DNA from: Ectocarpus siliculosus
Taxonomy: Eukaryota; Sar; Phaeophyceae; Ectocarpales; Ectocarpaceae
Direction: 5' to 3'
Assembly (NCBI GenBank): GCA_000310025.1
Contig: FN649733.1
Span: 1,704,979 to 1,768,978, forward strand
DNA: 64,000 bases
This document shows positions 78 to 44,400 of this stretch, piece by piece; the first letter of the stretch is position 1, and every line of letters begins with the position of its first letter. The notes under the pieces were generated by a model that was not told the origin of the DNA, made no database searches, and saw only the letters and a program-made list of their open reading frames with translations. The position numbers were made by a program, and so were the translations under genes.

Positions 78-3000
78 CGACGAGATGCGATTGCCTTTGA
101 CAGCGAGTTTGTCGCCACGTACGCGGGTTGTCTAGCCCGCTGGTACATTACAACGTCACCCTTCCTACGCCTCCGTGAGATGCACGCTTCTTTCTGCACA
201 ATCTCCAGTATTTGCGCGGCGGTTGCGTACGCGGTTGTGCCTGCGGGGTAGGACAGCCTTCATCGATTCCGGGCATGAGGACGTACAAAACTGGCTCTAA
301 ATCGCGCTAACCTCGATTGTATCGCCAGTCGTGAAACCAGTCACAAAGTACGTACGCGGTTTCTCTGTTGCCTTTAACGGCGTTTGTTTCCCGGTGGCAA
401 GGCATTAGGAACGGAAACCTTCCGCGCATCTTATGTTTTTGTCCCGCGGTGACCGCATGGTTCCCCCTCGCCCCCCCCCCCCCCCGCGCCGTCTGCATCT
501 GGGGGTTCCGTGTTGCTTTTTTTTTGCCCATCTTTCGCTCTCAGGCATCAAATACTGTTCCTGTCGGGCATATGCTTGATACCCGTCGTCACCACCTGGC
601 TCATCCCTGGCACGGCAGTCTTCGACGAGGAATCCAACTCTTGCGCCACCAACAGCGCGAGCATGTACCCGACCCTGGGCATGAACGCTTTGGGGATGTA
701 CGGGATATGCTACCTTTGGTGAGGGGACCGTGGTGCTTTCCCGTGCTTGTCTAGCTGGTAGGGCGATGCTTCTTCCGTGTTTGTGGTGGGCGCACGTGAA
801 GAACATCCATATGTTTGTATTTTTTTGTTGGGGTTACGCCACTGCTGGCTTTTGGAGGCGGTAATATATATATATATTTTTTTTTAACGTTTTTCGCGCG
901 GAGAACACCCTCCCTGTTGCCCATATTCTGGCCCCCGTCGGATGTCTTGGGATGCGACGGAGGATAATTCGCGTGTTTGGTTTGTGCCGTAGAGCACGTT
1001 TTCATGGTTGGCTTTTTTTGGTGGCGTTTGGTTGGAACATGTTTCATTCTTTGTGAAAGGTCCGATAATCGGAATTGACGTAAAGAAAGCTTGTTTTCTC
1101 CACGAAATCTGTTTTCTTGACAGCAGCTTCGCCTTTTCCCGGGGGGCGTCCTCGGTAGATTCTCCCCCTAAAGATAGGCGGAGCCCTTCCTTCCCGTTGT
1201 TTCATGTGCAGTGGTGTTGTCGGCGATTTAGGTACGACTGACAAGTGTTAGCCTGCTTGGCCTACAGGGAGTACTAAAACACAATACTCGAAGTAGTTCG
1301 TTAAATTCATGTTCTACCTTTGTGTTTTGCTTGCGCGTGCCTCCGCCGGACGACCCAACGGGCGCGGTTTTGCTCGGGGCGCGCTCTTCGCGCTGGCTTG
1401 ACTGCTGCGCGACGGGAACGACCCAGGTTCGTCTGCATCCGGAGGCTCAAGTCCGTCCGCAAGCAGTTCAACGAGTACCAGACGATGAAGCGCACGCTTC
1501 TCTACTTGACTTTGGCCCTCCTGAGCTACGCCCTCGTGGTTGTCGTGCTGCTCGCGGGCCAGCACGTGACCGTCAGGAGGGTCGCCATTCTATGTGAGAT
1601 TTGTTTTGGCTCTCTGGCGTGTGGTTTTTCTCGTGGTTCATCATTGCCGTGCGGTGCTTCTCGCCAACCACGTGGAGCCGCCTACCGCTGTAGCGCACGC
1701 TGAGAGACAAGACTTGTCGCGTCGTGCCGTTGTGCCTCCCCAAACACCGCTGTTCTCCATGGTGGTTGCGTTCGGCCCCATACCCCTGTGCCTTACCCTG
1801 CGCTTCGTTTCTCAGCTGTCCGTGGTGTGCGGCACTCCAACAGCGAAATGTCATGCGGTAACAGCCAATCCGACAGCGGATCATGGCAACAGCCTACATA
1901 ACAGGTCTCGCTCCGTGTGCCGATCCGGCGCTTTTTTTTGCTTTTTTTCGTCCTCGAAAACGGCTAGCCAGCCATGGCAGTAGCGAGGTGAGTCCGAGTT
2001 GCTCAAGACCGACGAAAAGGTTGGCGTCCCCCCTCTCCACTCATCCGCCCCCCTCCTCGCCTTCTTTTACGGACAGACCCCGTCATCACAACGTACATCC
2101 TGCTGTGGGGATCCATTCGCGAACCGTTCATGAAGAAGATTCTGGGAGATGACGAGTACCTCTGGTCCTACACCAAGGGGTTCTCCGAGCTGCCGTCGCC
2201 GGCCCAGGTGCTGCAACGATTAATGTCTGCTGCAGCGATTAATGTCTTGGTTGCGGTTGTTGGTGGGATGGTGGTTGATGTGCATTTTCTCGGGGGGGCT
2301 TTCCTCTCCTACCGCGCTGCTGCTGCTGCTGTTGCTCATGGTCGAACGGCGTAAGGTGTACGAGGATAGTGGTAGAGTTTTCTACTTTATTATAACACGG
2401 TCGTGGTGTTCAAACAATACGTGCGGTGTCTATCTTTTTTTGTGCGTGCCTACAATAGTTGATGAGAAAGAAAGCAGTGGAGCCCCGCCAAACAAGTTTC
2501 GGGTAGTTGCCTACCACCACGTCTACTGCACAACGATTTGGAGATGGCTTCACCCACCTTAAGTAGTGACATCTTAAGCGCGTACATTCGCCGGGTGTGC
2601 AGGTTGCCCCCACTGTTAGGTGTTGCCCGCGCTCGATGATTTTTTCGACGACGGGCGAGGGTCTGAAGCCGAGGACGTACATTGTCACCAATGGCCGGAG
2701 GCATTTGCCACAACCGGCCGTCAAACGTAAATGTTGCCGCCGTATCCAGAGATGGACTCACTCCCAAGATGAACTTGGATGTATTTGAGAAGTGGTAACC
2801 CGCCGCTCTCTCGCTAAGCGCTACTAAATATAAAAAATCGGCCCTGTTTCCGCCACGCTGCAAGCTCTACACAGAACGACAAATCAACGCATTTTTCCCT
2901 TGCCATTTAGACCGACACGGATTTTGGAAGGTGGAGGACCGACCGGAACAGTTTTTTTACATTACCACAGCAACTACCACAACAACGGCAGCAGCTACAC

Positions 3001-6000
3001 TGTTTCCTCTATTGCTTACGTAAGACTGTTGCGCGTGCTTCTCTCCACCCCCGCCTCCCTCCTTCGGCGATCTGTCTCGCGCTTGTTTCTTTTCACATGC
3101 GCCCCTCAGCTGAAGGCCAGCCTGGCGGAACAGCTTTCCGTGGAACAACTGCGGGACGAGTTCCGGCAGTACATCAAGACCAAGGTGGCCCAGGAACTGA
3201 TAGACTTTTACCTGGACTCGCTAGACCGGGAAGAGGTAATGGGTTTCTTCGAGAGACAGGTAGGTGGTCAAAATCAAATGTGGTGCCGCCGTTCTCGGCA
3301 ACCGCATGGTTAGTCCCCCGTTTTGTCGAGCCCACGGCAACAGCTAAGAAGACACCAATGCCGCTAGAGTTGCAGGTGCTATAGTACTAAATAAGTCAAT
3401 ACCATCTGCTGTGCGATGGCGTTGGATTTTATAGTCTGCGCTGCCTCGCGCTTGGTTGGTCCAAATGCACTAGAAAGAGCGAACGCGATCCTTTAAAGAA
3501 CCGTGCTACACAGCCGGGTCGTCTGATGACATGTGTTGAGGGAGCCACTACCGTTCTAGGGCAAGTGTGTCACCGAAGTGCACGCAGCGATGTATATTGT
3601 TTGTCTCGCGAGACCGCCGAAGGTGAAGCTGATCCAGACACGAGATGTATGGACACGCAAATTCATGGTGCGTGTTGTGCGTAATTTTAGCAAGGTACCG
3701 GAAGCGTTCGGCGTTATTGACATATTTACCGTGGTTCTACGTCGTGGAGGGACCGGATATCCACGCGCGCTGCATCCTGTGACCGCAAACAATTGGCTGA
3801 TGCGACTCCTCTTCTTTTTCGTTCGAATTGCCTCCATCAATATTTTTCTACATCCGAAGAAAGAGGGAGATACCAACTTGGCAGAGCACACACCTTTCTG
3901 CGCCTTTCTTATGTCCACCTACATCTACCTCTCGTCTCCGAGCGGCAACCACTGGTTCTCTTTGCCTCGGTGTAAGGAGTAATCCTTCTCCACGAAGTAG
4001 TCTTAGATGGCCAAGTCTCCCAAGACGTTACCCTACCATTTATTGAAAAGCCACGACATGATTGCTAGCTATCGTCCAAATTTCGATGTAGCTAGCTGCT
4101 GCCCTTCTGCCGCGTGACTCCAAAGCGGGCTGCATGGTACATATTGTGTCTTTCTCACAACGTGGTCCTTGGGTCCAGTGGACAAGCGTCTATCAAACTC
4201 TTGCCGCAGGAGCAGCGAGGCAGCAGAATGAGAACTCCGTGAGACCTTTCTGTTTTGGGACCCCAGAAAACCGAACCAAGACATCCGAACCAACGCGCCT
4301 CCAGGGCGGCACAACAAGAACCCAAGTACACACGTAGATCTGGGAGATGTTCCAAATTCTTCCGTGCACAATAAACTACAGTTTGTTCGGTCTTCGACAA
4401 CAAACTTTCATTTTTCTTTGCCACCTTCGAGGTCACCATGATACTACTCGTTCAGCGATGTCAGCCTCCTCTTATGGCTTCCCCACACCGTGCCTTCCCC
4501 CGACTACCTTGTCTCCAAGAATACGCGAGATCATTCGCGAGTCTTCCGTGTTGTTTACTGTATACTGTACGGCTTGTGGGCATCAGACTTCCACCTCCCT
4601 GCTCTCTGGATTACTACTCTCCGCAATGTAACCTCCAGCCTCCAGAGTGGAAGCCACCTCAATGCGAAGCGAATGTAGTGCAAGGTCCGTTGGGTTTCGC
4701 CCCGACGGTGAACAATCTACCCACGAAGAGCTTGGGAATACTTCGGAACCTTCACTTCACGGCCGCGACGGAATGATGGTAGCCGCGCCTCATCGGGCAA
4801 AGTTTCATGACATTATCACAACTACACCATGAAGGCGACTTGCTGGATGTGAGCGGCCCGCGCGTTCACCGGCGCCGTGGCCCGCCCCGCCGCCCCCCCC
4901 CCGCCGGCGACGAAACCGTCCCCACGACATGACCCCCGCGCCGGCGCCCGCGCCCGCTGCGCCCGCCGCTGGCCTATCGGTATCAGGACCCTGACGAGCG
5001 GTTTTGCCGTCGATCTCTAACTTGAGCTGTTGTATAGCGCCACGAGATGACGCCCTGCAGGTGGTCGATGACCTCGTCGCGGTCCACGCGCCGGAGCTTC
5101 TCCAACTCTCGGGGCGCAAACCGGCGATGGTGTCGCGGTCGGTTCCGGCGTCACCCCCGGCCCAAGGCGACTTCCGTGCCCTCGACGGGAGTTCGGGTCC
5201 ACGATCGGGCATGCCCACTGGCGACCGGGAGGCATTGGCGACGCGGGACGCCCGACAGACTTGGCCGCCATGTGAAACGTTTGCGACATGCACACCCCGC
5301 AAAACGCCCGTCAGACTGAACAAAAAGTGACTGATGGAGTGTATCCCGTGGACTCGGGGCCTCGGTTCGCACGACAAGTCTCCAGTATTTGTGTGTACGA
5401 CAAGCGCAGTCTATATCCTTGTAGACGACAGACTGTGAAAACGTATGTACTTTGGAATATGTTTTATTTGTAGAACCTCATCACATTTCACGACTGCAAC
5501 ATACATCTGATGTGCCTTTAACATGGCATGCTGCGCTGCACACTCGTGCCTAGTCCGTAGAGCACGTCATGAGGAAGCCACGGACCCCGTGATGCAGTCG
5601 TGTACATAAATGAAGTAAAATAAACGTTGTGTGTGTGTATTCTTCCCAAAGCACATGCAAGCTGCTGCATCGTGTGATAGACCGCGAAAAGCCTCGGAAC
5701 GGCGAGTGTCTCCGCGGCCAAAAATACGTCAGTCTACGTTGGCTTCGTGTTCCCATGAACGTGTGTACAACCAGCAAAGAGGTATTTGCTGCACGCTGTA
5801 CCCCACAGCGTGTGTGTACCCCACAATACCCGCCGCGTGTTCCGCTCCTCGACCCAACGGGCGGCCACCGAGTCAAACGCTGCCGCTCTCACGCTTTGGC
5901 GTTCATCGACGCAGTTCGCTCTGCGCACATCCACAGACACATGCCACCTCAGCCGTGGGCACGCGAGTCAGCACGCCCGGCGTTCTCTGCCGGTGCCGTG

Positions 6001-21226: not shown

Positions 21227-21230
21227 CTAT

Positions 21231-21528
21231 TTTAAAGGAGGGGAAGCCGTGGGTGGTAGCTTGCTCCTAGAGATAGATGAAGGTAGGTTCTGTCGTTGAC
21301 ACGCTTGTCCACGATCACGTAGAGATGAGAAAGTTGCTTGTTATTGCTGAGAGACGATCAGCAAGGGTCTGAGGTGAAGTGGGGATCCAACTTCACCTCA
21401 GGGGGGTACGCAGACTAGACAAAATCCTAAGAGGGTAGGTGTCTGAAGGGTATACCTCCTGAGACCGACCCACATCCTATCAACAATAAGATGTACCCTA
21501 TTTAAGCTAGCAGCCACACTCCTTAACA
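21231..21528 (-). repeat. 3' LTR of the gag-only element
   Basis: Same 298 bp as the other LTR, including the central hairpin at about 21370-21401. It follows a purine tract at 21541-21529 (minus) and is bordered outside by the CTAT target duplication. Confidence 0.85.
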
Positions 21529-21541
21529 CTAGCCCACCCTG
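21529..21541 (-). promoter_or_regulatory. Candidate polypurine tract
   Basis: The minus strand reads CAGGGTGGGCTAG directly against the 3' LTR, the expected position for priming of plus-strand DNA synthesis. Confidence 0.5.
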
Positions 21542-21931
21542 AATATCATATATGCAGATTCTATACTCAAATCAATGCTCAACTCCTAAAAGCTACAACG
21601 AAGATTTTAGCTGACGATTGATGCTCATGAATCGAAGATATGACTCTTCACAAAACATCCAAAAAGGAGGGTGAGTTGTAGAAACATCCCGAATCAACCC
21701 CCACACCATCATTGAGACGAAAGATGGATGCGAACGGCCACAAGACAACACATCGACATCTCAATGACAACGCTCCTATCAATGAAGGGATAAGGCCAAG
21801 AAAAATATGTAGTGCTGCACAGCACGCTATCCGCAACAGACGACGGCAAGAGAAATAAAGTCAAACCTAAACGCCACACACCACTCTTTTACGCGCACCC
21901 GCGCGTATAACAATGGGAGGAATGAGGGCGA

Positions 21932-24900
21932 CTACCCGAGAGAGCCCCAAAATACTGCAACAAAACTCAAAACCCAAGGTTCCTTGCGCAGATGGTTTTC
22001 TACCTGTTGGAAAGTGGCATCAAGAAATTCCAGCGTGGCACGGTTGGTGGTTTGACCTTCAACGACAGCAGCACGAACACGTTTGCGCAACAACGGAAGC
22101 CATCCTGCGACCCAGGTGGAGGAAGCGAAAGTCTGCTTGCGTTTGACGTCGCTTTTGTTGAGGATCTCGGTGACCACGCCCTTGCAGCTAGACGCGAAAC
22201 GAGCAAATTCATCAGGATCAGAACCAAGGGGCAAGCGTGTGACACTATCAAGTTGTTCCGGCTTCAGCTTGTCCATCTTGTCTTGAATGCGGATGGTGTC
22301 GGCCTCCGCTGCAGCGGCGTCCGCAGCGTCCAAAGCCTCCTGCCTCGTCCTCGCCCCCGTGGAAGACAAAGGCAAGCTAGCATCATCCTGAGGCAACGGC
22401 GATGTCGCGTTGGCCGGTGACGCCATGACGTGGCCGGTCGCCGGGCGAGGATCGATCAGGATAGACGTACGCGGGAGGGGGGGGGGCACCACCAAAGGCT
22501 GTTGTAGCAGAGCAGGGGCGGTCGACGCTGATGACACCACCAAAGGCTGTTGCGGCAGAGCTGGGGCGGTCGACGCTGATGACACCACCAAAGGCTGTTG
22601 CGGCAGAGCTGGGGCGGCCGGCGCTGATGACGATGACACTGCCGTGGTCCTGGCAGCTGCCTCATCGTGAACCTCGTACCCTGAACGAACTCCCGAGGAA
22701 CTCGAAGCGTGGTCTTGCAATGGTGCCAAATGCGCCCGTGACGAAAAGGGAGGGGCAGAAGGTGGCATGCTAGGGGCGTTCGAGGGCACAGAAGGTGGTA
22801 CATTCGAGTCGGCAGCAGCATCCACAACTTGGCCAGGCGTTTGCGCGCGCAGGAGAGTGAGCACTTGTTCCAACAGCATTTCAGTACGGGAAGCCGAAGT
22901 CGAGGCGTGTGATGCAGCATTGCGTGGTGAACCAACCCGTTCGTCCAAAAGCAAGGAAGATGTGGGCTGATCTACCACGGTGTGTGTAGGGGCATGGCTT
23001 TTAACCGCGGCGGAATGTTCACGAAGTTGCATGTTGGCAAGTTTGAACGCCAAAGTAGACACGGGCGGTGGTCCTACATCAGCGGGGGGGGGCAAAACCG
23101 GTGGCGAAGAACAGAGTGAACCATCTTCTGAGGCAGTCTTACGTTCCCCCAACAGCCCAGAACTACGAAAATCACACCGATCATACTGCACTTGCCTGCG
23201 ACCCCGACCTGACTTCCGCCGCCCTTTGCCCCCTCGACCGCTGTCCGAGCTGGTCGCCCTGCTGTTGCCCCCGCTCCTCGTCGGGCTCCGGCTGCGGCTA
23301 CGCCTACGCGAAGGCGTGTTGCTCCCGCGGCGGTCGCTGCTCCGGCTGCGACCACGCCGAGACGAAGGTGCGTGACGTGGCTGGCGGTCGGTGCTCCGGC
23401 TCCGGCTCCGGCTCTCGCGGTGTCGACGCTTGGACGAAGATTCCGCGTACCCCCGCCCGCCATCTTCAACACCCGGCCCTCGCGAAGTGCGCTCGGCCGT
23501 CCCGCTCTTGGCCGTGGGGGCTTGATCACCCCAACGGCTCCTCCGGCTGGCGGAGGCAGGAGCCGCCGACAGACTGTAGTCCTTGGTCCCTCCGGAACCA
23601 TGCGCACGGCGTGCAGAATCCTGCTGTGGGAGCTGCAGATCATGCTGAAAATCGTCGTTGGTTGCCGTACGAGCGAGCGGCAACCGAATGCCCCCGTTGT
23701 GCACCACCACCGCGGTTCCCTGGGGACCCTCGGTGAAGGAAGCCCTACGGAGAGCAGACACTAACAGAAACACACTCTGTCGTATGGACGGTTCTAACTG
23801 GTCGAGGAACGGACTCGATACAAGATGTGCAAAACCAAGGTCTGTATAAGAGTCAGGACAGCGGTCACGCACGATGTGTTGGAGGCCAGCCCACGCAAAA
23901 AGGGCACTAGTTCGGTCAGCATCATGGAAGGTGATCACATCTGTGGGCGTGGAAAGGGGGCGGGACAGAAACGCTGTGTCTTCTGCGTGAAACCTGTACT
24001 CCTCGGCTTCGTCGTCTGACGCGCCGTCGGCATCCCCGGCCGGCCCACCCAGCGTCACAGAAAACTGGGGAGCAGCAGCCACTTCCGGTGCCGCCTGGGG
24101 CGTGGGAGGGGGCACGACACGACGACGGACGGGTCGCGAAAGCAAAGTTGAAGTTTGCGGCCGGCGCCCGAGGTCCTCCAGCCGTGATCGGAGCGCCCCT
24201 TGCTTCGCCCTAGCAGCCCGGACATACTCCTCGCGCGCCGCTAGTTCCGCTTTCTTCTGTGCAGCAGCCCGAGCAGCCTCGCGCTCCTCCTCCTGCTTCC
24301 TCGCAGCCTCCGCCAGAGCAGCCTCACGCTCCTCCTCCTGCCTCCTCGCAGCTTCCGCCAGAGCAGCCTCACGCTCCTTCGCCTGCTTCCTCGCAGCCTC
24401 CGCCAGAGCAGCCTGACGCTCCTCCTCCTGCTTCCTCGCATCATCCGCCAGAGCAGCCTCACGCTCCTCCAGCAGCTTCCGCTCTTCCGCCGCCGCTACC
24501 TCGCTAGCCAGACCGCGGTGCCACATCTCGGTCAATTCTTGAAAGGCGGCGAACTCATCTTGCGACAAGTGCATCACCATGTCTTCCTGCGGGAGCGAGA
24601 AAGGGCGAGCGCAAATGGGGGAACCAGGAGACAAACGAGCTGCCCTGACCACGTCGCGCAGGGAGATCCGTCCAGCGGTGTACGCTTGTTCCAGGTCCGC
24701 CGGATCCGCCGTGGCGATGTTGTACCTCAGGTCATCAGCTGCGGACGCGCCTGGAGTGGACTCGCTCTCGTCGCCCGTCCCGGCCCCGGCAAGCAGCTCC
24801 GCGGTGGACGGCTCGCCCTCAGCCTCGTAATCGAGGATTTCCTCATTGCCGTCCATCAATTCCACATATCCGCTGGACATGGTGTTCTCTTTTTTCAAAA

Positions 24901-25792
24901 AGACAGGGCCAGAGGAAGGGCAGCTACTATCGATTTTTACAAGTGCAGAACGGCCAGCAACAGTAGATGTGTCACCCCCAACCGCTGTTGCGACAGCAGA
25001 ACCGATTGCAGCGGAAACAGTAAAGCGGGGCGTAATCGCGGTAGAAGCAAACCGAGGTCCATGCGAAAAACGGAGATACCCACAGGACAGCATACGTCCG
25101 GCGATAAAAGCTTGATGCACACGAGGTTGAAGCGGATCCAACCAAGCAGAAAAGGCGTCCAAAAGCACACCATGCCACGCATACACAGCAGTGGAAGCTA
25201 GCACAAAAGGACCGGTATTAAATGGGGACACGAGATTGTCCGACCAAAACACACGCAGAGCAGCACGGCGTTCCTCCGCAACGGGTGCCGAAGTGCGAGC
25301 AAAGACCGCTGTGGGTTTGCGCTGTTGAAAGGTTTCCAATTCGAATGCCTTGAGGGTGAATGATGCTCCAAAAAAAATTTCCATGTGATTGCGAAAAATG
25401 GAGGGAAGGCTGGTGGGGCGGCTGACACCCAATTTGTGTGCACACAATGCTCTCCACGTCGAAACAAGCGGAGTCAAATCGGAGAGCACCACAGGGAAAT
25501 CCGCGGACATCGGCCGGTACGCCGGCATGAATGCAGTAGAAGTGGTAGCGGACGCGGGAAGCATGCTATCATCTCGAGTCCCGCTACACAAAGACAGCAA
25601 CTCCGGTTGCTTCATGCAAAGCGTGTCCGCCACCGAAATAACTTCATGGACCGCCGATGCAGACAAAATAGCTTGGGAGGGGCGGCGAGCGTAGGAAAAA
25701 TCACCTACAACATCGCGATGACCGCCGAGACGCGTATCCTTCGCAAGGTCCCAGTCCCGCGGGCGCTTAGCGAAAGCATCGCAAGCCAGCAT
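21932..25792 (-). CDS. Gag-like protein of the LTR element, 1286 residues
   Basis: A single uninterrupted frame fills most of the element. Residues 1-300 are globular-looking and unrecognised. An alternative start at residue 305 (MSSGYVELMDGNEE) opens an acidic stretch. Residues about 431-537 form a long Ala/Glu/Arg/Lys coiled coil of repeated EEREAALAEAARKQ. Residues about 780-855 are an Arg-Ser domain (SRSRSRST, RRRSRSRSPTR). Residues about 1055-1100 hold three 16-residue APALPQQPLVVSSAST copies. The C-terminus has a helical segment with PLLRKRVRAAVVEGQTTN. No CCHC knuckle, DSG protease motif, YVDD box or DDE motif is visible. A structural nucleoprotein role is inferred from position and coiled coil only. 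An RS domain is unusual for Gag and may indicate capture from a host gene. Confidence 0.7.
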   Translation of the reverse strand: MLACDAFAKRPRDWDLAKDTRLGGHRDVVGDFSYARRPSQAILSASAVHEVISVADTLCMKQPELLSLCSGTRDDSMLPASATTSTAFMPAYRPMSADFPVVLSDLTPLVSTWRALCAHKLGVSRPTSLPSIFRNHMEIFFGASFTLKAFELETFQQRKPTAVFARTSAPVAEERRAALRVFWSDNLVSPFNTGPFVLASTAVYAWHGVLLDAFSAWLDPLQPRVHQAFIAGRMLSCGYLRFSHGPRFASTAITPRFTVSAAIGSAVATAVGGDTSTVAGRSALVKIDSSCPSSGPVFLKKENTMSSGYVELMDGNEEILDYEAEGEPSTAELLAGAGTGDESESTPGASAADDLRYNIATADPADLEQAYTAGRISLRDVVRAARLSPGSPICARPFSLPQEDMVMHLSQDEFAAFQELTEMWHRGLASEVAAAEERKLLEEREAALADDARKQEEERQAALAEAARKQAKEREAALAEAARRQEEEREAALAEAARKQEEEREAARAAAQKKAELAAREEYVRAARAKQGALRSRLEDLGRRPQTSTLLSRPVRRRVVPPPTPQAAPEVAAAPQFSVTLGGPAGDADGASDDEAEEYRFHAEDTAFLSRPLSTPTDVITFHDADRTSALFAWAGLQHIVRDRCPDSYTDLGFAHLVSSPFLDQLEPSIRQSVFLLVSALRRASFTEGPQGTAVVVHNGGIRLPLARTATNDDFQHDLQLPQQDSARRAHGSGGTKDYSLSAAPASASRRSRWGDQAPTAKSGTAERTSRGPGVEDGGRGYAESSSKRRHRESRSRSRSTDRQPRHAPSSRRGRSRSSDRRGSNTPSRRRSRSRSPTRSGGNSRATSSDSGRGGKGRRKSGRGRRQVQYDRCDFRSSGLLGERKTASEDGSLCSSPPVLPPPADVGPPPVSTLAFKLANMQLREHSAAVKSHAPTHTVVDQPTSSLLLDERVGSPRNAASHASTSASRTEMLLEQVLTLLRAQTPGQVVDAAADSNVPPSVPSNAPSMPPSAPPFSSRAHLAPLQDHASSSSGVRSGYEVHDEAAARTTAVSSSSAPAAPALPQQPLVVSSASTAPALPQQPLVVSSASTAPALLQQPLVVPPPLPRTSILIDPRPATGHVMASPANATSPLPQDDASLPLSSTGARTRQEALDAADAAAAEADTIRIQDKMDKLKPEQLDSVTRLPLGSDPDEFARFASSCKGVVTEILNKSDVKRKQTFASSTWVAGWLPLLRKRVRAAVVEGQTTNRATLEFLDATFQQVENHLRKEPWVLSFVAVFWGSLG
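22487..22630 (-). repeat. 48-bp tandem repeat inside the gag-like ORF
   Basis: caccaccaaaggctgttg recurs at 48-bp spacing three times on the plus strand. On the minus strand it encodes 16-residue Pro/Ala/Ser units without breaking frame. Confidence 0.85.
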
Positions 25793-25941
25793 CCTCTACA
25801 AGAGAAGAAGCAGAGAAGGCTAAGTCTAGAATCTCGTGGGTGGTGAGACCAAATAACAAACAACCCCGTGATTGTGAAGAAAGCGTGACAACAACACACA
25901 GCAGTGGAGGCCGCGTCCAGCACCCGCTTACCGTGTAATGC

Positions 25942-25953
25942 CAGCTGACGCCA
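25942..25953 (-). promoter_or_regulatory. Candidate primer-binding site
   Basis: Starts 2 nt inside the 5' LTR and reads TGGCGTCAGCTG on the minus strand. TGG plus a TCAG core resembles the TGGTATCAG of initiator-Met tRNA sites. The match is partial, so the primer tRNA is a guess. Confidence 0.45.
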
Positions 25954-25955
25954 AG

Positions 25956-26253
25956 TTTAAAGGAGGGGAAGCCGTGGGTGGTAGCTTGCTCCTAGAGATA
26001 GATGAAGGTAGGTTCTGTCGTTGACACGCTTGTCCACGATCACGTAGAGATGAGAAAGTTGCTTGTTATTGCTGAGAGACGATCAGCAAGGGTCTGAGGT
26101 GAAGTGGGGATCCAACTTCACCTCAGGGGGGTACGCAGACTAGACAAAATCCTAAGAGGGTAGGTGTCTGAAGGGTATACCTCCTGAGACCGACCCACAT
26201 CCTATCAACAATAAGATGTACCCTATTTAAGCTAGCAGCCACACTCCTTAACA
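25956..26253 (-). repeat. 5' LTR of the gag-only element
   Basis: Identical over its length to 21231-21528. On the minus strand a TATA-like TTAAATAGG lies near its start. A perfect 11-bp hairpin (ctgaggtgaag/cttcacctcag, around 26095-26126) lies centrally and could be a transcript structure or 3'-end signal. Confidence 0.85.
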
Positions 26254-26257
26254 CTAT

Positions 26258-26768: not shown

Positions 26769-26896
26769 CTATTTCGTAGATCCTCCATGTTCTTGAACCA
26801 ATGTCCGCAGTTTGACGAATTGGACACGTTCCAGATGCTTGGTCAATATGTCCGCAAGCTGCTCCTCACTCCTCACGAACTTTAGCACAATACTGA
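26769..26896 (-). pseudogene. Copia retrotransposon, RNase H C-terminal fragment
   Basis: The minus strand reads VLKFVRSEEQLADILTKHL followed by FVKLRTLVQEHGG and a stop. This matches the hallmark end of Ty1/Copia pol, where K-(Y/F)-V-R-S-x-x-Q-x-A-D-(I/L)-(L/M)-T-K precedes the terminal helix. About 42 codons survive. Immediately upstream the frame passes into a SINE, so the rest of pol is missing. Confidence 0.8.
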
Positions 26897-27212
26897 GGTC
26901 GCCCCGGTGGTCTAGTTGGTATCCTCGAACCCTTCTAAATAAAGGCCAGGTCAGGCGTTCGAATCCCGGCGTACGCGAGCTTTTCTTGCAAAGTGAGTTT
27001 TTCTCTCGCTTCCGCTGCTGGCCTAGAGGATAGCTCCAGTTCGTGTGTGCACAGAGGGAAGAGAGTGCTGAACTCTTCACGCATTAAAAATCGAAGGCAA
27101 AGTACCGCAGGAGGGGAGGGTAGAGAGGGGCTCTTCTGTGTGACCACGGGTAGGAGTAAACGGCACTAGTGCTGTGAGCGCTGATTGGAAGTGAAGACAA
27201 AAAAAAAAAAAA
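26897..27212 (+). mobile_element. tRNA-derived SINE, copy A
   Basis: The head resembles a tRNA with an A box (tggtctagttggt, about 26908-26920) and a B box (cgttcgaatccc, about 26955). A unique body follows (cgcttccgctgctggcctag, then gggaagagagtgctgaactc) and the end is an A run at 27199-27212. Two further copies share head and body in the same order (35224-35885 minus, 54171-54488 minus). A polymerase III promoter is inferred from the boxes. Confidence 0.75.
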
Positions 27213-32408: not shown

Positions 32409-35400
32409 ATGTCGTCGTCGCTGCTGCTGCCACTGCTCTTGCTGGGCTGTTCGTCATTCTACGGTCAGTGCGCCACCATATCGATTTCTCCGGGAGGCAC
32501 CGCTTTTCAGGTACAGACAACACCATCATCGGCCGATCGCATTTTCAGCGTCGATAGGTTGTGAGGGGCTCGTTTGTCTGATGAGATCGCTCAGTGCGCG
32601 ACTCCCGTTTAGGCCATTTCCAAGCCACGCCCAAGTAGTCCGCGTCCGTCCGACCAAGCAGTAAATAAACTGATTACCACATGAGTGTAGCCTACACAAC
32701 AACATGATGTTTGGAGATTGGAAGTTCTGAGCGGAGATCTCAACAGTTTCTCTGCCTCTTGGTCTACTACGTACACCAGCGATTAACGGGATTAGGGTTT
32801 TCTCTCCGCCGTAGCTCTGCGGCCTCCCTACTGCTATAGGAGCGGCTGGGCGGCTACAGCACATAAGAAGAGCATGCTCGAACGCCCCTATGAACACGAC
32901 CAAACGTGGTGGAAATTCATACAATAATTAATTGTATGAACGATTTGAAAAAAAAAAAAGTGGGCACTGATCGATAATTCGGGTGGCTCGGTTCTTTGTG
33001 CTTGGAGCTCAAAGCGGGTGGCTCATGGCGGGGCGTGGAAGGGTAGAAACATGTAGAAAACGTATCGAAAAGGATTGGAAAGTATTGTATTCATCGGGGG
33101 CGTGCCAGTGCTCGTCAAACCTTCACGGTATCTGGGCACGCCTTCACTCTTTGTCACTCAAGGAATCTCTCTGAATCTCCACCAAATACCTCTCGCAACC
33201 AAGGAATATATGTAGAAAGTTCCTATCCCTCCGCATCTCATCACTGTTACTTTCGTACGTNNNNNNNNNNNNNNNNNNNNNNNNNNNNNNNNNNNNNNNN
33301 NNNNNNNNNNNNNNNNNNNNNNNNNNNNNNNNNNNNNNNNNNNNNNNNNNNNNNNNNNNNNNNNNNNNNNNNNNNNNNNNNNNNNNNNNNNNNNNNNNNN
33401 NNNNNNNNNNNNNNNNNNNNNNNNNNNNNNNNNNNNNNNNNNNTTTTTGGGAAATTTTTAAATTTTTTTTTTAAAAAACCCAGTTTAGTTTTTTTTTTCC
33501 CTTCTTGGGCCCCCACGGGGGGGGGGGGGTGGCCCCAGCGGATTGGTCTTGTTTCGCCTAAAAAATGGCGCAGGTCACGCCAACAATCGGTCACAGACAG
33601 CTTGAATTTCAACCCGGACCGCGCCAACAATTTTGCACATGGCCTACAAGCAAACAACAAATTGTATCGGGATGAGCATGCTTTGTGGACAGAGAACTAG
33701 CCGGTTCACCTCCTCCCTCGTGCACCATTCTATTTGAACGTGGCGTCATCAAAGAGCAGAGTTGCCCCGAACGTGTTGGACGTACGTGCAGGTTCAGAAA
33801 ATCGTAAATTGCACTAACTATGAAACGAGGCGTAAGAATGCGACGCATAGACTTTACTACAGTATGTAGTATTATTGAGTAATATCAAATTTTTGATGAC
33901 TCTTCTACACTATCATGTTATCATGTTACATATATACTCACAGGATGGTCGTCGTGACATGATACATTTCTTGTTATATAGTACAAATATGGAAAAAAAT
34001 AGAAAATAAATGGCTCGATTTTTGTATTTCTACAGCAGTAAAGTATGGACCAGACGCCGACTGTACATAGAAGTTGCCGAGTGTCGACTTAGTTGTGCTG
34101 TCACAGCATCTTCCACGCACTTCTGCCAGTGCTGGTTTGTTGGTTGGAGTCTTGTAGGTCGAGATACAGCAGTGGGATTCTCGGGGTGTGGAGGCAAAGT
34201 GAACTAGAGCAAAAAATTAATTGCATGCATAGCTCGATTACTGCTGCTGCTGTGTTTTTGCAACAGCAATATGGACTAGACGCCGAACGACGTCCGCGTA
34301 CTACCGCAACGACCTAACTGGATGGGATGCTTCCTGCCACGGCGAACCATAGTACAAATGTGATGCAAACATCCGTTCGTGTGTCGCGCGGCTGCCACAT
34401 GTGTCGACGACAGGGACACGTAGATTTCTCGCCATGTTTTGTCGTTACCGCGCAGGAGGACCTCTCGGAGATCTTCCACATGGTGCTACAACGACAGCAG
34501 TACTACTGTACATAGATGTCGTAGGAGAGTGGAGTTGTGCTGTCACGGCATCTCCTACGCACTCTCCTACCGGTGCTTGTGTCGATTGGAGTCTTGTAGG
34601 CCGAAATACAAGAGAGGGTTGGGTTCCCGGGTTGTGGAAGAACCTGCCTGAAACAACAGAGAAGGGGGTGTTATATTTACTACGACAATCCCGCTCAACT
34701 TTTTTTTTCTTTGCGGCATGTGGTTGCATATTTTTCTTTGCCACTGCCGAAAAAGACCACTGGATCTTTACGCAGTCCATCTTTCGCATTTATTTATCAT
34801 TTTACACCGCGAACGACGCAGGACGGGTCGACCTTCATCATTGTTGTTGTTGTTGTGTCGTCACATTTAAAACCGTTCCGATCTCTCTCTACCCAGTACC
34901 TTCATATGTAATGTCCGCTTGTGGATTATACCTGTTGGAAATTGTGGGAATCCCTACACATTCCGAGAGAGCCATAGGTCGGCATCCGGCCTTTTCATTT
35001 TTTGTACAAGTATGCACTTTTTTTCTTCTTGTGAAGTTTCGACGTTGCGCTTGCCATCGTCGCTTAAGTATTTGTGTCTTCAAACCTTCTCACTCAGTCG
35101 GCCTTCAAACTTGTTGTTGATAAGTCTCCGTGGTAACTTCTCCGCGCATGAGTCACATGCGGTTATGATGTGCGCTCTGACTTTCACGATGGTCCCCGTC
35201 TTGCATTGGTGAGTACCTGCGTTATTTTATTTTATTTTTTTTACTTTTTCTTTTTTTTGTCTTCACTTCGAATCAGCGCTCACAGCACTAGCGCCGTTTA
35301 CTCCAAACCCGTGGTCACACAGAAGACCCCCTCTCTCTACCCTCCCCTCCTACGGTACTTTGCCTTCGATTTTAAATACGAGAAGAGTTCAGCACTCTCT

Positions 35401-41400: not shown

Positions 41401-44400
41401 CGGACGCGGATGACTCCGTCGTTCGCTAAGTCTCGAGCACGTGACAGCAGACATAGCTGTGGGACGTAGTCCAGAGAATATAAACCGATGTACATACCTG
41501 GGATGCATTTCATGATTGCCTCAAAAACCACAGGATAGACATTCGTTGGCAAACGTCTTGGTCAGCCGTGCAGCGCTGGTTGCGATGCATCCGTATTAGC
41601 AACGCGAAGTAGGAATTCATCTTCGCTGGGCGATGCCATGCACACTGCGAGGCGTTCCAGAAGCACGAGGGCGTGTGTTCACAGCAGCACAAGCGTTCCC
41701 AATAGCGGGGAACATTGCCGCCTCACATGCAGTCTTTGCATCAACCTGCTGCGGCGGGCACTGAAGCAATCGCAAATCACACGAGTAACAGCAACGAAAA
41801 AAATCCCATCGTTCGTGGGCAGGCATCGGAAGCCGTGGTGACCGGAGCATCATCCGCTACAACCACATCCAAGACACGGACGGCGCGGGTGTCCGTCTAG
41901 GCGGCCATGTCGTCGACAACATTGAGTACGGCGCCAACAACCAGGTGCTCGTGGAGTCTGGCCATGCCGAGAATTCTAACTTCATGCAATCGCAAGGCGC
42001 CGCATTTTCTCACAGACGCAAACCGCTTGTTTCTAAAAACGCAAAGGCTGTGCAAGGGAGGCTCGTCAGAGCAAGTTTCATCACCGGAATAATTACTGTC
42101 GTCACGGGGGTGGATGTCTGACGGTAGAGAGCTACACCGTCACTGTAAGGCAGACGGTTCTTTGACGCCCATCCTAGTAGTCGATCTCAACCGCTAAATA
42201 GCGTGCTATGACGCAAAGACGCGCCACCTGTCGACGGCGTTCCCGGGCCCCCCAGAACCTTGAAGTTCGAGGGCGACATCGCCTCATGGCCGATTTCAGA
42301 TAGATGTAGTGTGATTTCTGGCCGGAGCATCTTCGCACGCACTGAATTCGACAAGACGAGATGGTGTCGAACGAGTCGACGTCCCACGGCGGTGTTTATT
42401 TACCCATCTCATAGGCGAACTCCTGCCTCCGGTTTCCCCTCTGCCGTATAACTATCCGGGCCCCTCGCGCATGCAACAGGTATACGGAAACACCATGATC
42501 GACTGCCGGGCCTCCGCAGTAAAGGTCATGGTCGAACCCCAGGGTCAGATCTGCGAGAACGAGGTTATACTTCCTGATGACGTTGACGAGGACGACGTGA
42601 GTGTTGAATGCTGGGTTGGCGACCGGTGTTTTTTTCCTGGCCTGTTTTCCTTGTGGATACGATACCCCAAGGTGTGAGGAGGGGCGTCACGAGGATTGGT
42701 CATGATCACTTGATGGGGATTTTCCGCACGAACAAATCAGGCCACGGGAGTAGGAAACGTTTTTTCTGGCTTGTGAGATTGCCGCCGAAACCTGACGGGT
42801 GTTTCGAACATGACACAACACTCGATTCTTTTATGAAAAGAGCACGCGAAAAGGGGTAGGAAGTGGCTCTCATGGAGGAGTGCAATGCGGTGCCGCCGTT
42901 CTATCCCCGCTGACGAATGTTCGTCAAAGATGGATCTGGAGAAGAAGTAGGAGAGCGCCCCCCTTCGCCATTCCTCTGAGCTCCGTTTCTCTCTCTTTCT
43001 CTCTCTCTCTCTCCCCTTCTGTCTGTCTGTCTTTCTGTCTCCTTGAACTTGGCGCTATCAACGCAGTATGACTATTCCGGAGGAGCCTACTACTACGACC
43101 CGTTGAAACCCTGTGACTCTTCGCCCACGCCGGTTCCCGAGCCAACCCCTTCAACGGTAATATTGATACTTCAAAGAATACACTAGGGACAAGAGGTCGA
43201 AATGTAATGGCAACAACGCGTCGTGCGTTTCATTTGATATGCTGGCGCCGTCCATATTGGTGTGGGCCGTTCGTCATTTGCTCGAGTGGTGAGACTAGTC
43301 CGCTGTCCTTTACGTTCTGCTTGATATCACGACTCCGGGAACGTATTGGGACTTTTAAACCGATTCTTCGTATCGACCGCGGTTTGTATTCATGTCATTG
43401 GCAATAGAAATAGAAGTCCCACCAGGCAACAAAATGTTCGGACTATTCTGCTCTTTTGGGCAGGTCGCCCTCGTGCTCTAGTGTTTTTTTGTAGCGTTGG
43501 CACTTTTTATTCTGGCGGTCATGCATAGGTAGATGCAGTGAACACCGCCGAGGCGTGTTTTTACCGTTTCATCCGCTGGCATGGGAAGGGGTCGGTTCGT
43601 GCGTGCGTGTGTGCAGTCAAGGGCAGGAAGTGTGGGAAGCCATCCTCATGGGGTCGAAAAGGGAAGCATTCGCGCCGCAACGTATATTCCGCCGCCGACA
43701 TGACCACGGGTCTTAGCTCTTGAGCGAGAGATTCAGCAATCGCGGGGTATTTATTTGCATAGGTAACGGAGAGTGCGCCTCATATCACCCATAACGTGGG
43801 GGTGGAAACGGACTAAAAGCACTCTCCCATCGCTCGCGCGCTTCGTTGTTGTGTGCCCAGGTGACCCCGACACTGGCGGCAACACCCGAGCCAACCACCG
43901 AGGCGCCAACGACCGAGGCGCCAACGACCGAGGCGCCAACGACCGAAGCGCCAACGACCGAGGCGCCAACGACCGAGGCGCCAACGACCGAAGCGCCAAC
44001 GACCGAGGCGCCAACGACCGAGGCGCCAATGACCGAAGCGCCAACGACCGAGGCGCCAACGACCGAGGCGCCAACGACCGAAGCGCCAACGACCGAGGCG
44101 CCAACGACCGAGGCGCCAATGACCGAAGCGCCAACGACCGAGGCGCCAACGACCGAAGCGCCAACGACCGAGGCGCCAACGACCGAGGCGCCAACGACCG
44201 AGGCGCCAACGACCGAAGCGCCAACGACAGAGGTGCCTCCGACCCAACCGCCAACGACCGAAGCGCCAACGACCGAGGCGCCAACGACCGAGGCGCCAAC
44301 GACCGAGGCGCCAACGACCGAGGCGCCAACGACCCAACCGCCAACGACCGAGCCAACGACCGAGCCCGGAACTGGTAAGTATTCCGAAGATACACCATTC

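What the first reader, a model, noticed from the sequence alone, without database searches (positions are those of the whole stretch)
21227..26257. Young gag-only LTR retrotransposon with an RS domain and coiled coil
Identical 298-bp LTRs, TGTTA start, 4-bp target duplication, PBS-like and PPT-like tracts and one intact 1286-codon ORF, but no enzymes. TR-GAG elements are known from plants. An algal example with a 75-residue Arg-Ser domain, a long Ala/Glu coiled coil and an unrecognised 300-residue N-terminal domain would be new or little described. Intactness implies recent mobilisation in trans.
Basis: partly seen in the sequence, partly recalled or inferred. Interest (0 to 1): 0.8.

Follow-up and report, generated by a model that had tools for sequence, protein, structure and literature searches.

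The report
Deleted copy of larger brown-algal retrotransposon
This is a recently inserted jumping element that has lost the 9,000-letter middle of a 13,700-letter parent still present in many copies in the same genome, probably a brown alga's, so it looks like a one-off defective copy and not a new gag-only family.

Summary
In detail: 298-bp identical LTRs, 4-bp CTAT target duplication, PBS, weak PPT and one 1286-codon ORF on the minus strand. The interpretation does not. The genome holds 116 matches to the LTR head. The 30 exact heads form 12 pairs: 8 are 13.5-14.4 kb apart, and the window pair is one of 4 shorter ones. Long copies carry the same gag plus a Ty3/gypsy pol with a NADAR domain at its start. 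The window copy lacks about 9 kb, from inside gag to the 3' region. Its joint shares 1 bp, is not GT-AG, and occurs once in the genome. Its ORF is 1271 of about 1606 Gag residues plus 15 out-of-frame codons; the CCHC zinc knuckle is lost. So it is a private internal-deletion derivative with an incomplete Gag. The PBS fits tRNA-Ser. Two sister derivatives carry tRNA-Ser(CGA) copies joined to gag interior, one of them 55 bases with its only mismatch opposite A58: marks of misdirected reverse transcription. The NADAR-Gypsy lineage was described in Ectocarpus in 2025, and two Ectocarpus proteins match this family. Ordinary at the core; moderately useful for the parent family.

The parts
21227..21230 (.). 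target-site duplication CTAT, left copy
   Evidence: read; 8 of 10 family LTR pairs examined have a 4-bp duplication
26254..26257 (.). target-site duplication CTAT, right copy
25956..26253 (-). 5' LTR (sense is minus strand)
   Evidence: identical to 21231-21528; 116 LTR-head matches in genome with up to 3 mismatches, control 0
21231..21528 (-). 3' LTR
25944..25953 (-). primer binding site TGGCGTCAGC, complementary to the 3' end (with CCA) of tRNA-Ser(CGA) and tRNA-Ser(TGA); some other copies match tRNA-Ser(CGA) over 14 or 18 bases
21529..21543 (-). weak polypurine-tract-like stretch next to the 3' LTR
   Evidence: same sequence in 4 of 4 other copies looked at; function inferred
21932..25792 (-). 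1286-codon ORF: Gag residues 1-1271 plus 15 codons read out of frame past the deletion joint
24977..25792 (-). conserved Gag N-terminal domain (residues 1-272), unknown fold
   Evidence: 53% identity to P0001 over residues 1-272; 58 matching stretches in the genome; dN/dS 0.15-0.35 in the 8 divergent pairs with a usable dS
24227..24505 (-). Ala/Glu/Arg-rich coiled-coil-like run (residues 430-522) on 45-bp tandem repeats
   Evidence: coiled coil not predicted by a program
23192..23437 (-). Arg-Ser-rich domain (residues 786-867)
   Evidence: basic/Ser-rich stretches at a like place in P0001, P0002, P0004 (by eye)
22487..22631 (-). 48-bp x 3 tandem repeat in gag
21980..22390 (-). first part of the conserved, presumed capsid region (residues 1135-1271), cut by the deletion
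   Evidence: 80% identity to P0001, 56% to P0002; capsid identity inferred, structure model too poor
21978..21979 (-). deletion joint: 8,885-9,010 bp present in 5 of 5 long copies measured is missing here; 1-bp microhomology

Best explanation
The element is one internally deleted, non-autonomous copy of a roughly 13.7-kb Ty3/gypsy retrotransposon of the NADAR-carrying Gypsy kind. Shown: LTRs, PBS, leader, the first 1271 Gag residues and the 3' end are kept at 95.6-99.7% identity to longer copies in the same genome; about 9 kb from late gag to near the 3' end is missing; the joint is unique in the assembly. Inferred: the parent's RNA is primed by tRNA-Ser; Gag (about 1606 aa) is made up to a TGA stop, and Pol by reading through it in the same frame; during reverse transcription the enzyme switched template across about 9 kb at a 1-bp match, and the shortened DNA was integrated with enzymes supplied by a full-length copy, giving the 4-bp duplication. 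The confidence given is for the deletion-derivative claim; for the step 'shortened before insertion' I give about 0.6, the rest going to the second rival. The remaining ORF would give a Gag without its zinc knuckle and without most of the presumed capsid.
For: Same LTR in 40 of 40 scored places at 98-100% (188 candidates); 116 LTR-head matches; 12 exact-head pairs, 8 of them 13.5-14.4 kb apart. Long copies align over elem 1-748 and from 748 on, with about 9 kb between. Nearest copy measured, C36: 10 mismatches and 50 gap positions in 4277 bp, plus 4 mismatches and 6 gap positions in 754 bp. Joint once in genome. Pol domains in L012: NADAR 6.7e-45, RVT_1 4.4e-25, RNase H, integrase zinc-binding domain; rve below cut-off; LLDSGS protease-like motif. 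CCHC in 7 of 7 Gag C-termini examined, absent from the window ORF. AAA TGA C(T/A)T at the gag-pol border in 7 of 7, the frame running on past it in 7 of 7, though pol is broken further on in some. tRNA-Ser fit. C27: LTR, exact 18-nt tRNA copy, then gag interior at once; C340: LTR, tRNA copy running on with one mismatch in 55 bases, exactly opposite A58, then about 9 other bases, then gag interior.
Against: No read or RNA data: the joint rests on the assembly alone. Readthrough is inferred; the RNA after the stop is less structured than shuffles (z +1.70). Nothing separates deletion during reverse transcription from deletion after insertion for this copy. Two of 10 LTR pairs lack a target duplication (C27, C219), so not every pair is a simple insertion. 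C27 and C340 lost their stretch next to the PBS, the window copy elsewhere, so they show the process only by analogy.
Confidence: 0.93

Rival explanations
1. A true gag-only (TR-GAG-like) family: an element that has kept gag and multiplies in trans.
For: Two identical LTRs, TSD, PBS and one long ORF. Gag-only Copia families were reported in Ectocarpus (PMC12477816, passage read).
Against: Joint present once; no other pair of this size among the 12 exact-head pairs (which listed 100 of 116 places); Gag truncated, zinc knuckle lost.
Confidence: 0.03
2. A full-length copy inserted here and later lost 9 kb by a chromosomal deletion (alternative for the last step of the best explanation, not to the derivative claim).
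For: 1-bp microhomology fits end joining; intact TSD and LTRs fit both orders.
Against: 4 of 12 exact-head pairs are shortened although LTR pairs are nearly identical (9 of 10 identical); two sister derivatives carry reverse-transcription marks.
Confidence: 0.33
3. The ORF is an ordinary host gene caught in a segmental duplication.
For: Long open frame with no Pfam match.
Against: Same coding sequence lies at the same place inside long LTR copies followed by pol; target duplications differ between sites; no empty-site paralogue with up to 3 mismatches.
Confidence: 0.01
4. Assembly artefact: repeat collapse joined two parts of a full-length copy.
For: Near-identical repeats are prone to this; the joint is seen only in the assembly.
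Against: The joint is not at a long repeat (1 bp shared); other shortened copies have other ends.
Confidence: 0.04

Closest known systems
NADAR-carrying Gypsy lineage of Ectocarpus (e.g. Gypsy-12_Ec32; PMC12477816, passages read)
   Same: Parent copies have NADAR at the start of Pol, then RT, RNase H, integrase, and a chromo-like tail below cut-off. Ectocarpus sp. CCAP 1310/34 protein P0003 is 92.8-94.0% identical over residues 539-1159 (RT, RNase H) in 5 of 5 copies where that is one piece.
   Different: Window copy has lost all of this. Other pieces of P0003 match at about 79-92%, one 40-residue piece at 70%. The passages I read do not mention an RS domain, a tRNA-Ser primer or a TGA at the gag-pol border; I did not read the whole paper and had no curated sequences to compare.
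TR-GAG elements of plants (name and class seen in PMC10552921 passages; original paper recalled, not read)
   Same: LTR element with gag-derived ORF and no pol.
   Different: One copy, truncated Gag, deletion of a parent found in the same genome.
Copia-N1_Ec32 / Copia-11_Ec32, gag-only Copia families of Ectocarpus (PMC12477816, passage read)
   Same: LTR elements with a gag-homologous ORF only, in a brown alga.
   Different: Those are families of another superfamily; this is one Gypsy copy.
Tca2 of Candida albicans (PMC2194720, only the abstract opening in the listing)
   Same: UGA between gag and pol.
   Different: Tca2 has a potential pseudoknot after the UGA; a simple fold shows none here, though it cannot predict pseudoknots.
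Phytophthora nicotianae NADAR, PDB 8BAU (PMC11543638, passages and section 12 read)
   Same: Sequence match E 6.5e-17; E43, K50, R79, W89, R93, E125, D130, W133 equivalents kept in the family copy.
   Different: Stand-alone enzyme, not in a retrotransposon; Y84 is F and D86 is Y in the family copy.

Membership tests
TR-GAG | paired LTRs, TSD, PBS, PPT | tested here: met
   PPT weak
TR-GAG | complete Gag ORF as sole coding region | tested here: not met
   about 335 of 1606 residues and the CCHC knuckle missing
TR-GAG | amplified as its own structure (recalled) | tested here: not met
   joint once in this genome; other strains not searched
Ty3/gypsy (Metaviridae), parent copies | RT-RNase H-integrase order in pol | tested here: met
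   L012 and L014 pol; rve core itself scores below cut-off; window copy lacks pol
Ty3/gypsy (Metaviridae), parent copies | RT phylogeny | not tested
   no tree built
NADAR-Gypsy lineage of Ectocarpus | YbiA-type NADAR at N-terminal part of Pol | tested here: met
   PF08719 at residues 302-453 of the L012 pol, E 6.7e-45
NADAR-Gypsy lineage of Ectocarpus | C-terminal chromodomain | tested here: inconclusive
   Chromo E 0.021, 15.2 bits, cut-off 25.1; MPP8 chromodomain E 0.55
NADAR-Gypsy lineage of Ectocarpus | sequence match to Ectocarpus members | tested here: met
   P0003 and P0004, named Ectocarpus sp. CCAP 1310/34; the curated Ec32 families themselves were not available
Autonomous LTR retrotransposon (window copy) | own protease, RT, integrase | tested here: not met
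   no Pfam domain in the ORF; pol deleted

The most novel reading that the evidence does not exclude
The truncated Gag from this copy (N-terminal domain, coil-like run, RS region, front of the presumed capsid, no zinc knuckle) is made and enters particles of the full-length family, so that this one insertion interferes with its parents, as truncated Gag proteins are recalled to do for other retroelements. No expression data exclude or support it.
Probability: 0.05. Interest if true: 0.6.

Novelty: new member of a known kind. Interest (0 to 1): 0.3.

Why it matters
It corrects a plausible but wrong reading (gag-only family) and shows where the element came from. It also adds facts about the NADAR-Gypsy kind, reported in Ectocarpus in 2025: tRNA-Ser priming, a TGA between gag and pol with the frame running on (7 of 7 copies), an RS-rich Gag with a CCHC knuckle at its far end, NADAR active-site residues kept in divergent loci, and near-identical LTR pairs that point to recent activity. 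A sister derivative holds a 55-base DNA copy of the primer tRNA whose only mismatch lies opposite A58, a rare direct trace of how such elements go wrong in reverse transcription. A retrotransposon that carries an enzyme fold able to remove ADP-ribose from guanine (shown for the oomycete relative) is a testable case of possible counter-defence.

Tried and rejected
Spliced-RNA origin of the gap: rejected, the missing piece does not begin GT and end AG.

tRNA: an exact pattern built on the window's own PBS (1 mismatch allowed) and a whole-tRNA pattern gave no match; a looser T-arm pattern gave 11 matches against 6 for the reversed control. ARAGORN on 7 of these 11 loci found 5 tRNA-Ser genes, 3 CGA and 2 TGA; the other 4 loci (L080, L082, L085, L086) were not scanned.

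Structure: AlphaFold2 on the Gag N-terminal domain (3 sequences, pLDDT 31) and on the presumed capsid region (5 sequences, pLDDT 49) failed; the fold search had 127 matches at E up to 10 and 0 at E 0.001. Capsid identity therefore rests on position before the CCHC knuckle only.

Pfam on the window ORF (E up to 1), the L009 gag and P0001: no family; P0002: two weak hits below cut-off. RNA structure after the TGA: none better than shuffles. Paralogous empty site: none with up to 3 mismatches. Tudor-like pol tail: best hit an antibody chain, SETDB1 at E 0.23 or worse.

dN/dS: of 15 Gag N-terminal pairs, 8 divergent ones with dS 1.0-2.2 give 0.15-0.35; 1 had no dS; 6 close pairs have few changes, 3 of them with dN at or above dS. 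Of 15 NADAR pairs 10 had saturated dS; the other 5 give 0.06-0.24.

Corrections: an earlier count said Gag about 1770 aa and 500 lost; one search gives about 1606 and 335 (note). Note says both C27 and C340 have exactly 18 tRNA bases; one search shows that C340 has a longer tRNA copy.
Full report
What is there. The window carries an LTR retrotransposon at 21231-26253, sense on the minus strand. Both LTRs are 298 bp and identical, and CTAT flanks the element. One ORF of 1286 codons fills most of the inside.

The LTR is common in this genome. A whole-genome search scored 40 of 188 candidates, at 98-100% identity. A 30-base LTR-head pattern with up to 3 mismatches gives 116 places, against 0 for the reversed control (100 places were listed). 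The 30 exact matches form 12 same-strand pairs, with start-to-start spacing 13,564 (C3), 4,725 (window), 14,444 (C9), 13,702 (C15), 3,179 (C24), 13,492 (C25), 11,180 (C27), 13,693 (C36), 13,651 (C158), 13,671 (C219), 10,490 (C340) and 14,016 (C476); 6 are unpaired.

The parent. Long copies share elem 1-748 and 748-5023 with the window element (95.6-99.7% identity in the stretches held) and carry 8,885-9,010 bp in between (5 of 5 copies measured: C15, C36, C219, C3, C25 at 554 kb). That stretch holds the end of gag and a pol of 2,377 codons in L012: NADAR (PF08719, E 6.7e-45), an LLDSGS retropepsin-like motif (recalled), RVT_1 (4.4e-25), RNase H, integrase zinc-binding domain; rve scores 28.6 bits against a cut-off of 32.6. 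A chromo-like stretch follows, below cut-off (E 0.021).

The window copy is a deletion of it. The joint lies at 21978, shares one base between the two sides and is not GT-AG. The joint sequence occurs once in the genome with up to 3 mismatches. In the parents Gag runs about 1606 codons to a TGA; the window ORF has 1271 of them and then 15 codons out of frame. The 7 Gag C-termini examined all carry CLNCLGEDHSFKSC, a CCHC knuckle, in the lost part; the window ORF has none. So the ORF looks intact but is not a whole Gag.

Gag to Pol. In 7 of 7 copies the border reads AAA TGA C(T/A)T and the frame runs on past it; pol is broken further on in some copies. Readthrough of TGA is the simplest reading. 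Tca2 of Candida also has UGA there (PMC2194720, abstract opening in the listing; I did not read how it is bypassed). The fold after our TGA is weaker than shuffles (z +1.70).

Priming and how deletions arise. After the LTR and CT the window reads TGGCGTCAGC. The genome's tRNA-Ser(CGA) genes end in ATCCTGCCGCTGACG, the tRNA-Ser(TGA) genes in ATCCCGTCGCTGACG or TTCCCGTCGCTGACG; the window's 10 bases fit both kinds. Copies C9, C476, C27 and C340 have TGGCGTCAGCGGCAGGAT, the exact complement of the last 18 bases of tRNA-Ser(CGA) with CCA. From general knowledge, plus-strand synthesis usually stops there, before the modified A58. In C27 gag interior follows at once. In C340 the tRNA copy runs on: 55 of its bases align to the tRNA gene with one mismatch, exactly opposite A58, then come about 9 other bases and gag interior. 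Both are expected if plus-strand DNA that had copied the primer tRNA landed at the wrong place. This shows that shortened copies of this family arise during reverse transcription; for the window copy it is an analogy. C9 and C476 instead have some 250 extra bases between PBS and the common leader.

Age. LTR pairs are identical in 9 of 10 copies examined (window, C15, C24, C340, C25 at 554 kb, C9, C3, C219, C36) and differ by one base in C27. Four-base duplications flank 8 of these 10; C27 and C219 have none. The 10 are 9 of the 12 exact-head pairs plus C25 at 554 kb; C25 at 884 kb, C158 and C476 were not examined for this.

Relatives and host. A protein search with the Gag gave 2 proteins (only the 7,994 candidates sharing most words were scored): P0001 and P0002, Gags of 1,567 and 1,507 aa from unnamed sources, with a similar N-terminal domain, a basic/Ser-rich region and a CCHC knuckle. 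A search with the C-terminal part of P0001 gave 4: these two plus P0003 and P0004, both from Ectocarpus sp. CCAP 1310/34, with gag end, NADAR and RT. P0003 is 92.8-94.0% identical to our pol over residues 539-1159 in 5 of 5 copies where that is one piece, about 79-92% in most other pieces and 70% in one short piece.

What is known. [quoted passage not shown] The parent therefore belongs to a published kind. In our genome PF08719 has at least 150 matches (150 of 230 candidates scored). Of the 4 best given with flanks, 4 also match P0003 on the pol side of NADAR; the context of the others was not examined. In 20 of these loci, the family copy and P0003 (22 sequences; 2 with damaged middles, 1 with an inner stop), residues equivalent to 8BAU E43, E125, D130 and W133 are kept in 22 of 22, K50 in 21, R79, W89 and R93 in 20, K75 in 19; against this, Y84 is F in 20 and D86 is kept in none (residue roles from PMC11543638 section 12; chain index is residue number plus 2). 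The Gag N-terminal domain gives dN/dS 0.15-0.35 in the 8 divergent pairs with a usable dS.

Verdict. A young, private, internally deleted copy of a known kind of brown-algal Gypsy element. The gag-only reading is rejected for this genome. The most novel reading left is that the truncated Gag interferes with its parents, for which there is no evidence yet.

Noticed in passing
L012:7591-8046 (-), and at least 150 places in the genome: NADAR domain at the start of Pol with conserved ADP-ribose-contacting residues; six divergent loci compared are 54.7-80% identical. 4 of 4 loci with flanks also match pol.
   Followed up: partly
L013 (C340), sense, just after the 5' LTR: DNA copy of 55 bases of primer tRNA-Ser(CGA) with a single mismatch exactly opposite A58, then about 9 bases, then gag interior.
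   Followed up: yes
L012:1900-2142 (-): After the chromo-like stretch the pol tail reads GARLWYKARDGLWWTGRIGAHQDGSYIVRFLDDPG, which looks Tudor-like by eye; only weak SETDB1 hits. A chromo plus Tudor-like pair in one Pol would be unusual.
   Followed up: partly
L011 from 584 on (C24): Short derivative with a repeated LTR end (CCTCCTTTAAA) and a second PBS just after the first.
   Followed up: no
L007 and L023 flanks: The outer flank of one LTR in C10 and C219 carries a PBS-like TATGGCGTCAGC, as if a related element's internal start lies next to it.
   Followed up: no
window 43890-44364: 15-bp unit repeated about 32 times, open in several frames.
   Followed up: no
window 26769-27080 (-): Short ORF with a Ty1/copia RNase H-end look (EEQLADILTKHL; motif recalled).
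   Followed up: no
window 33261-33443: Run of N.
   Followed up: no
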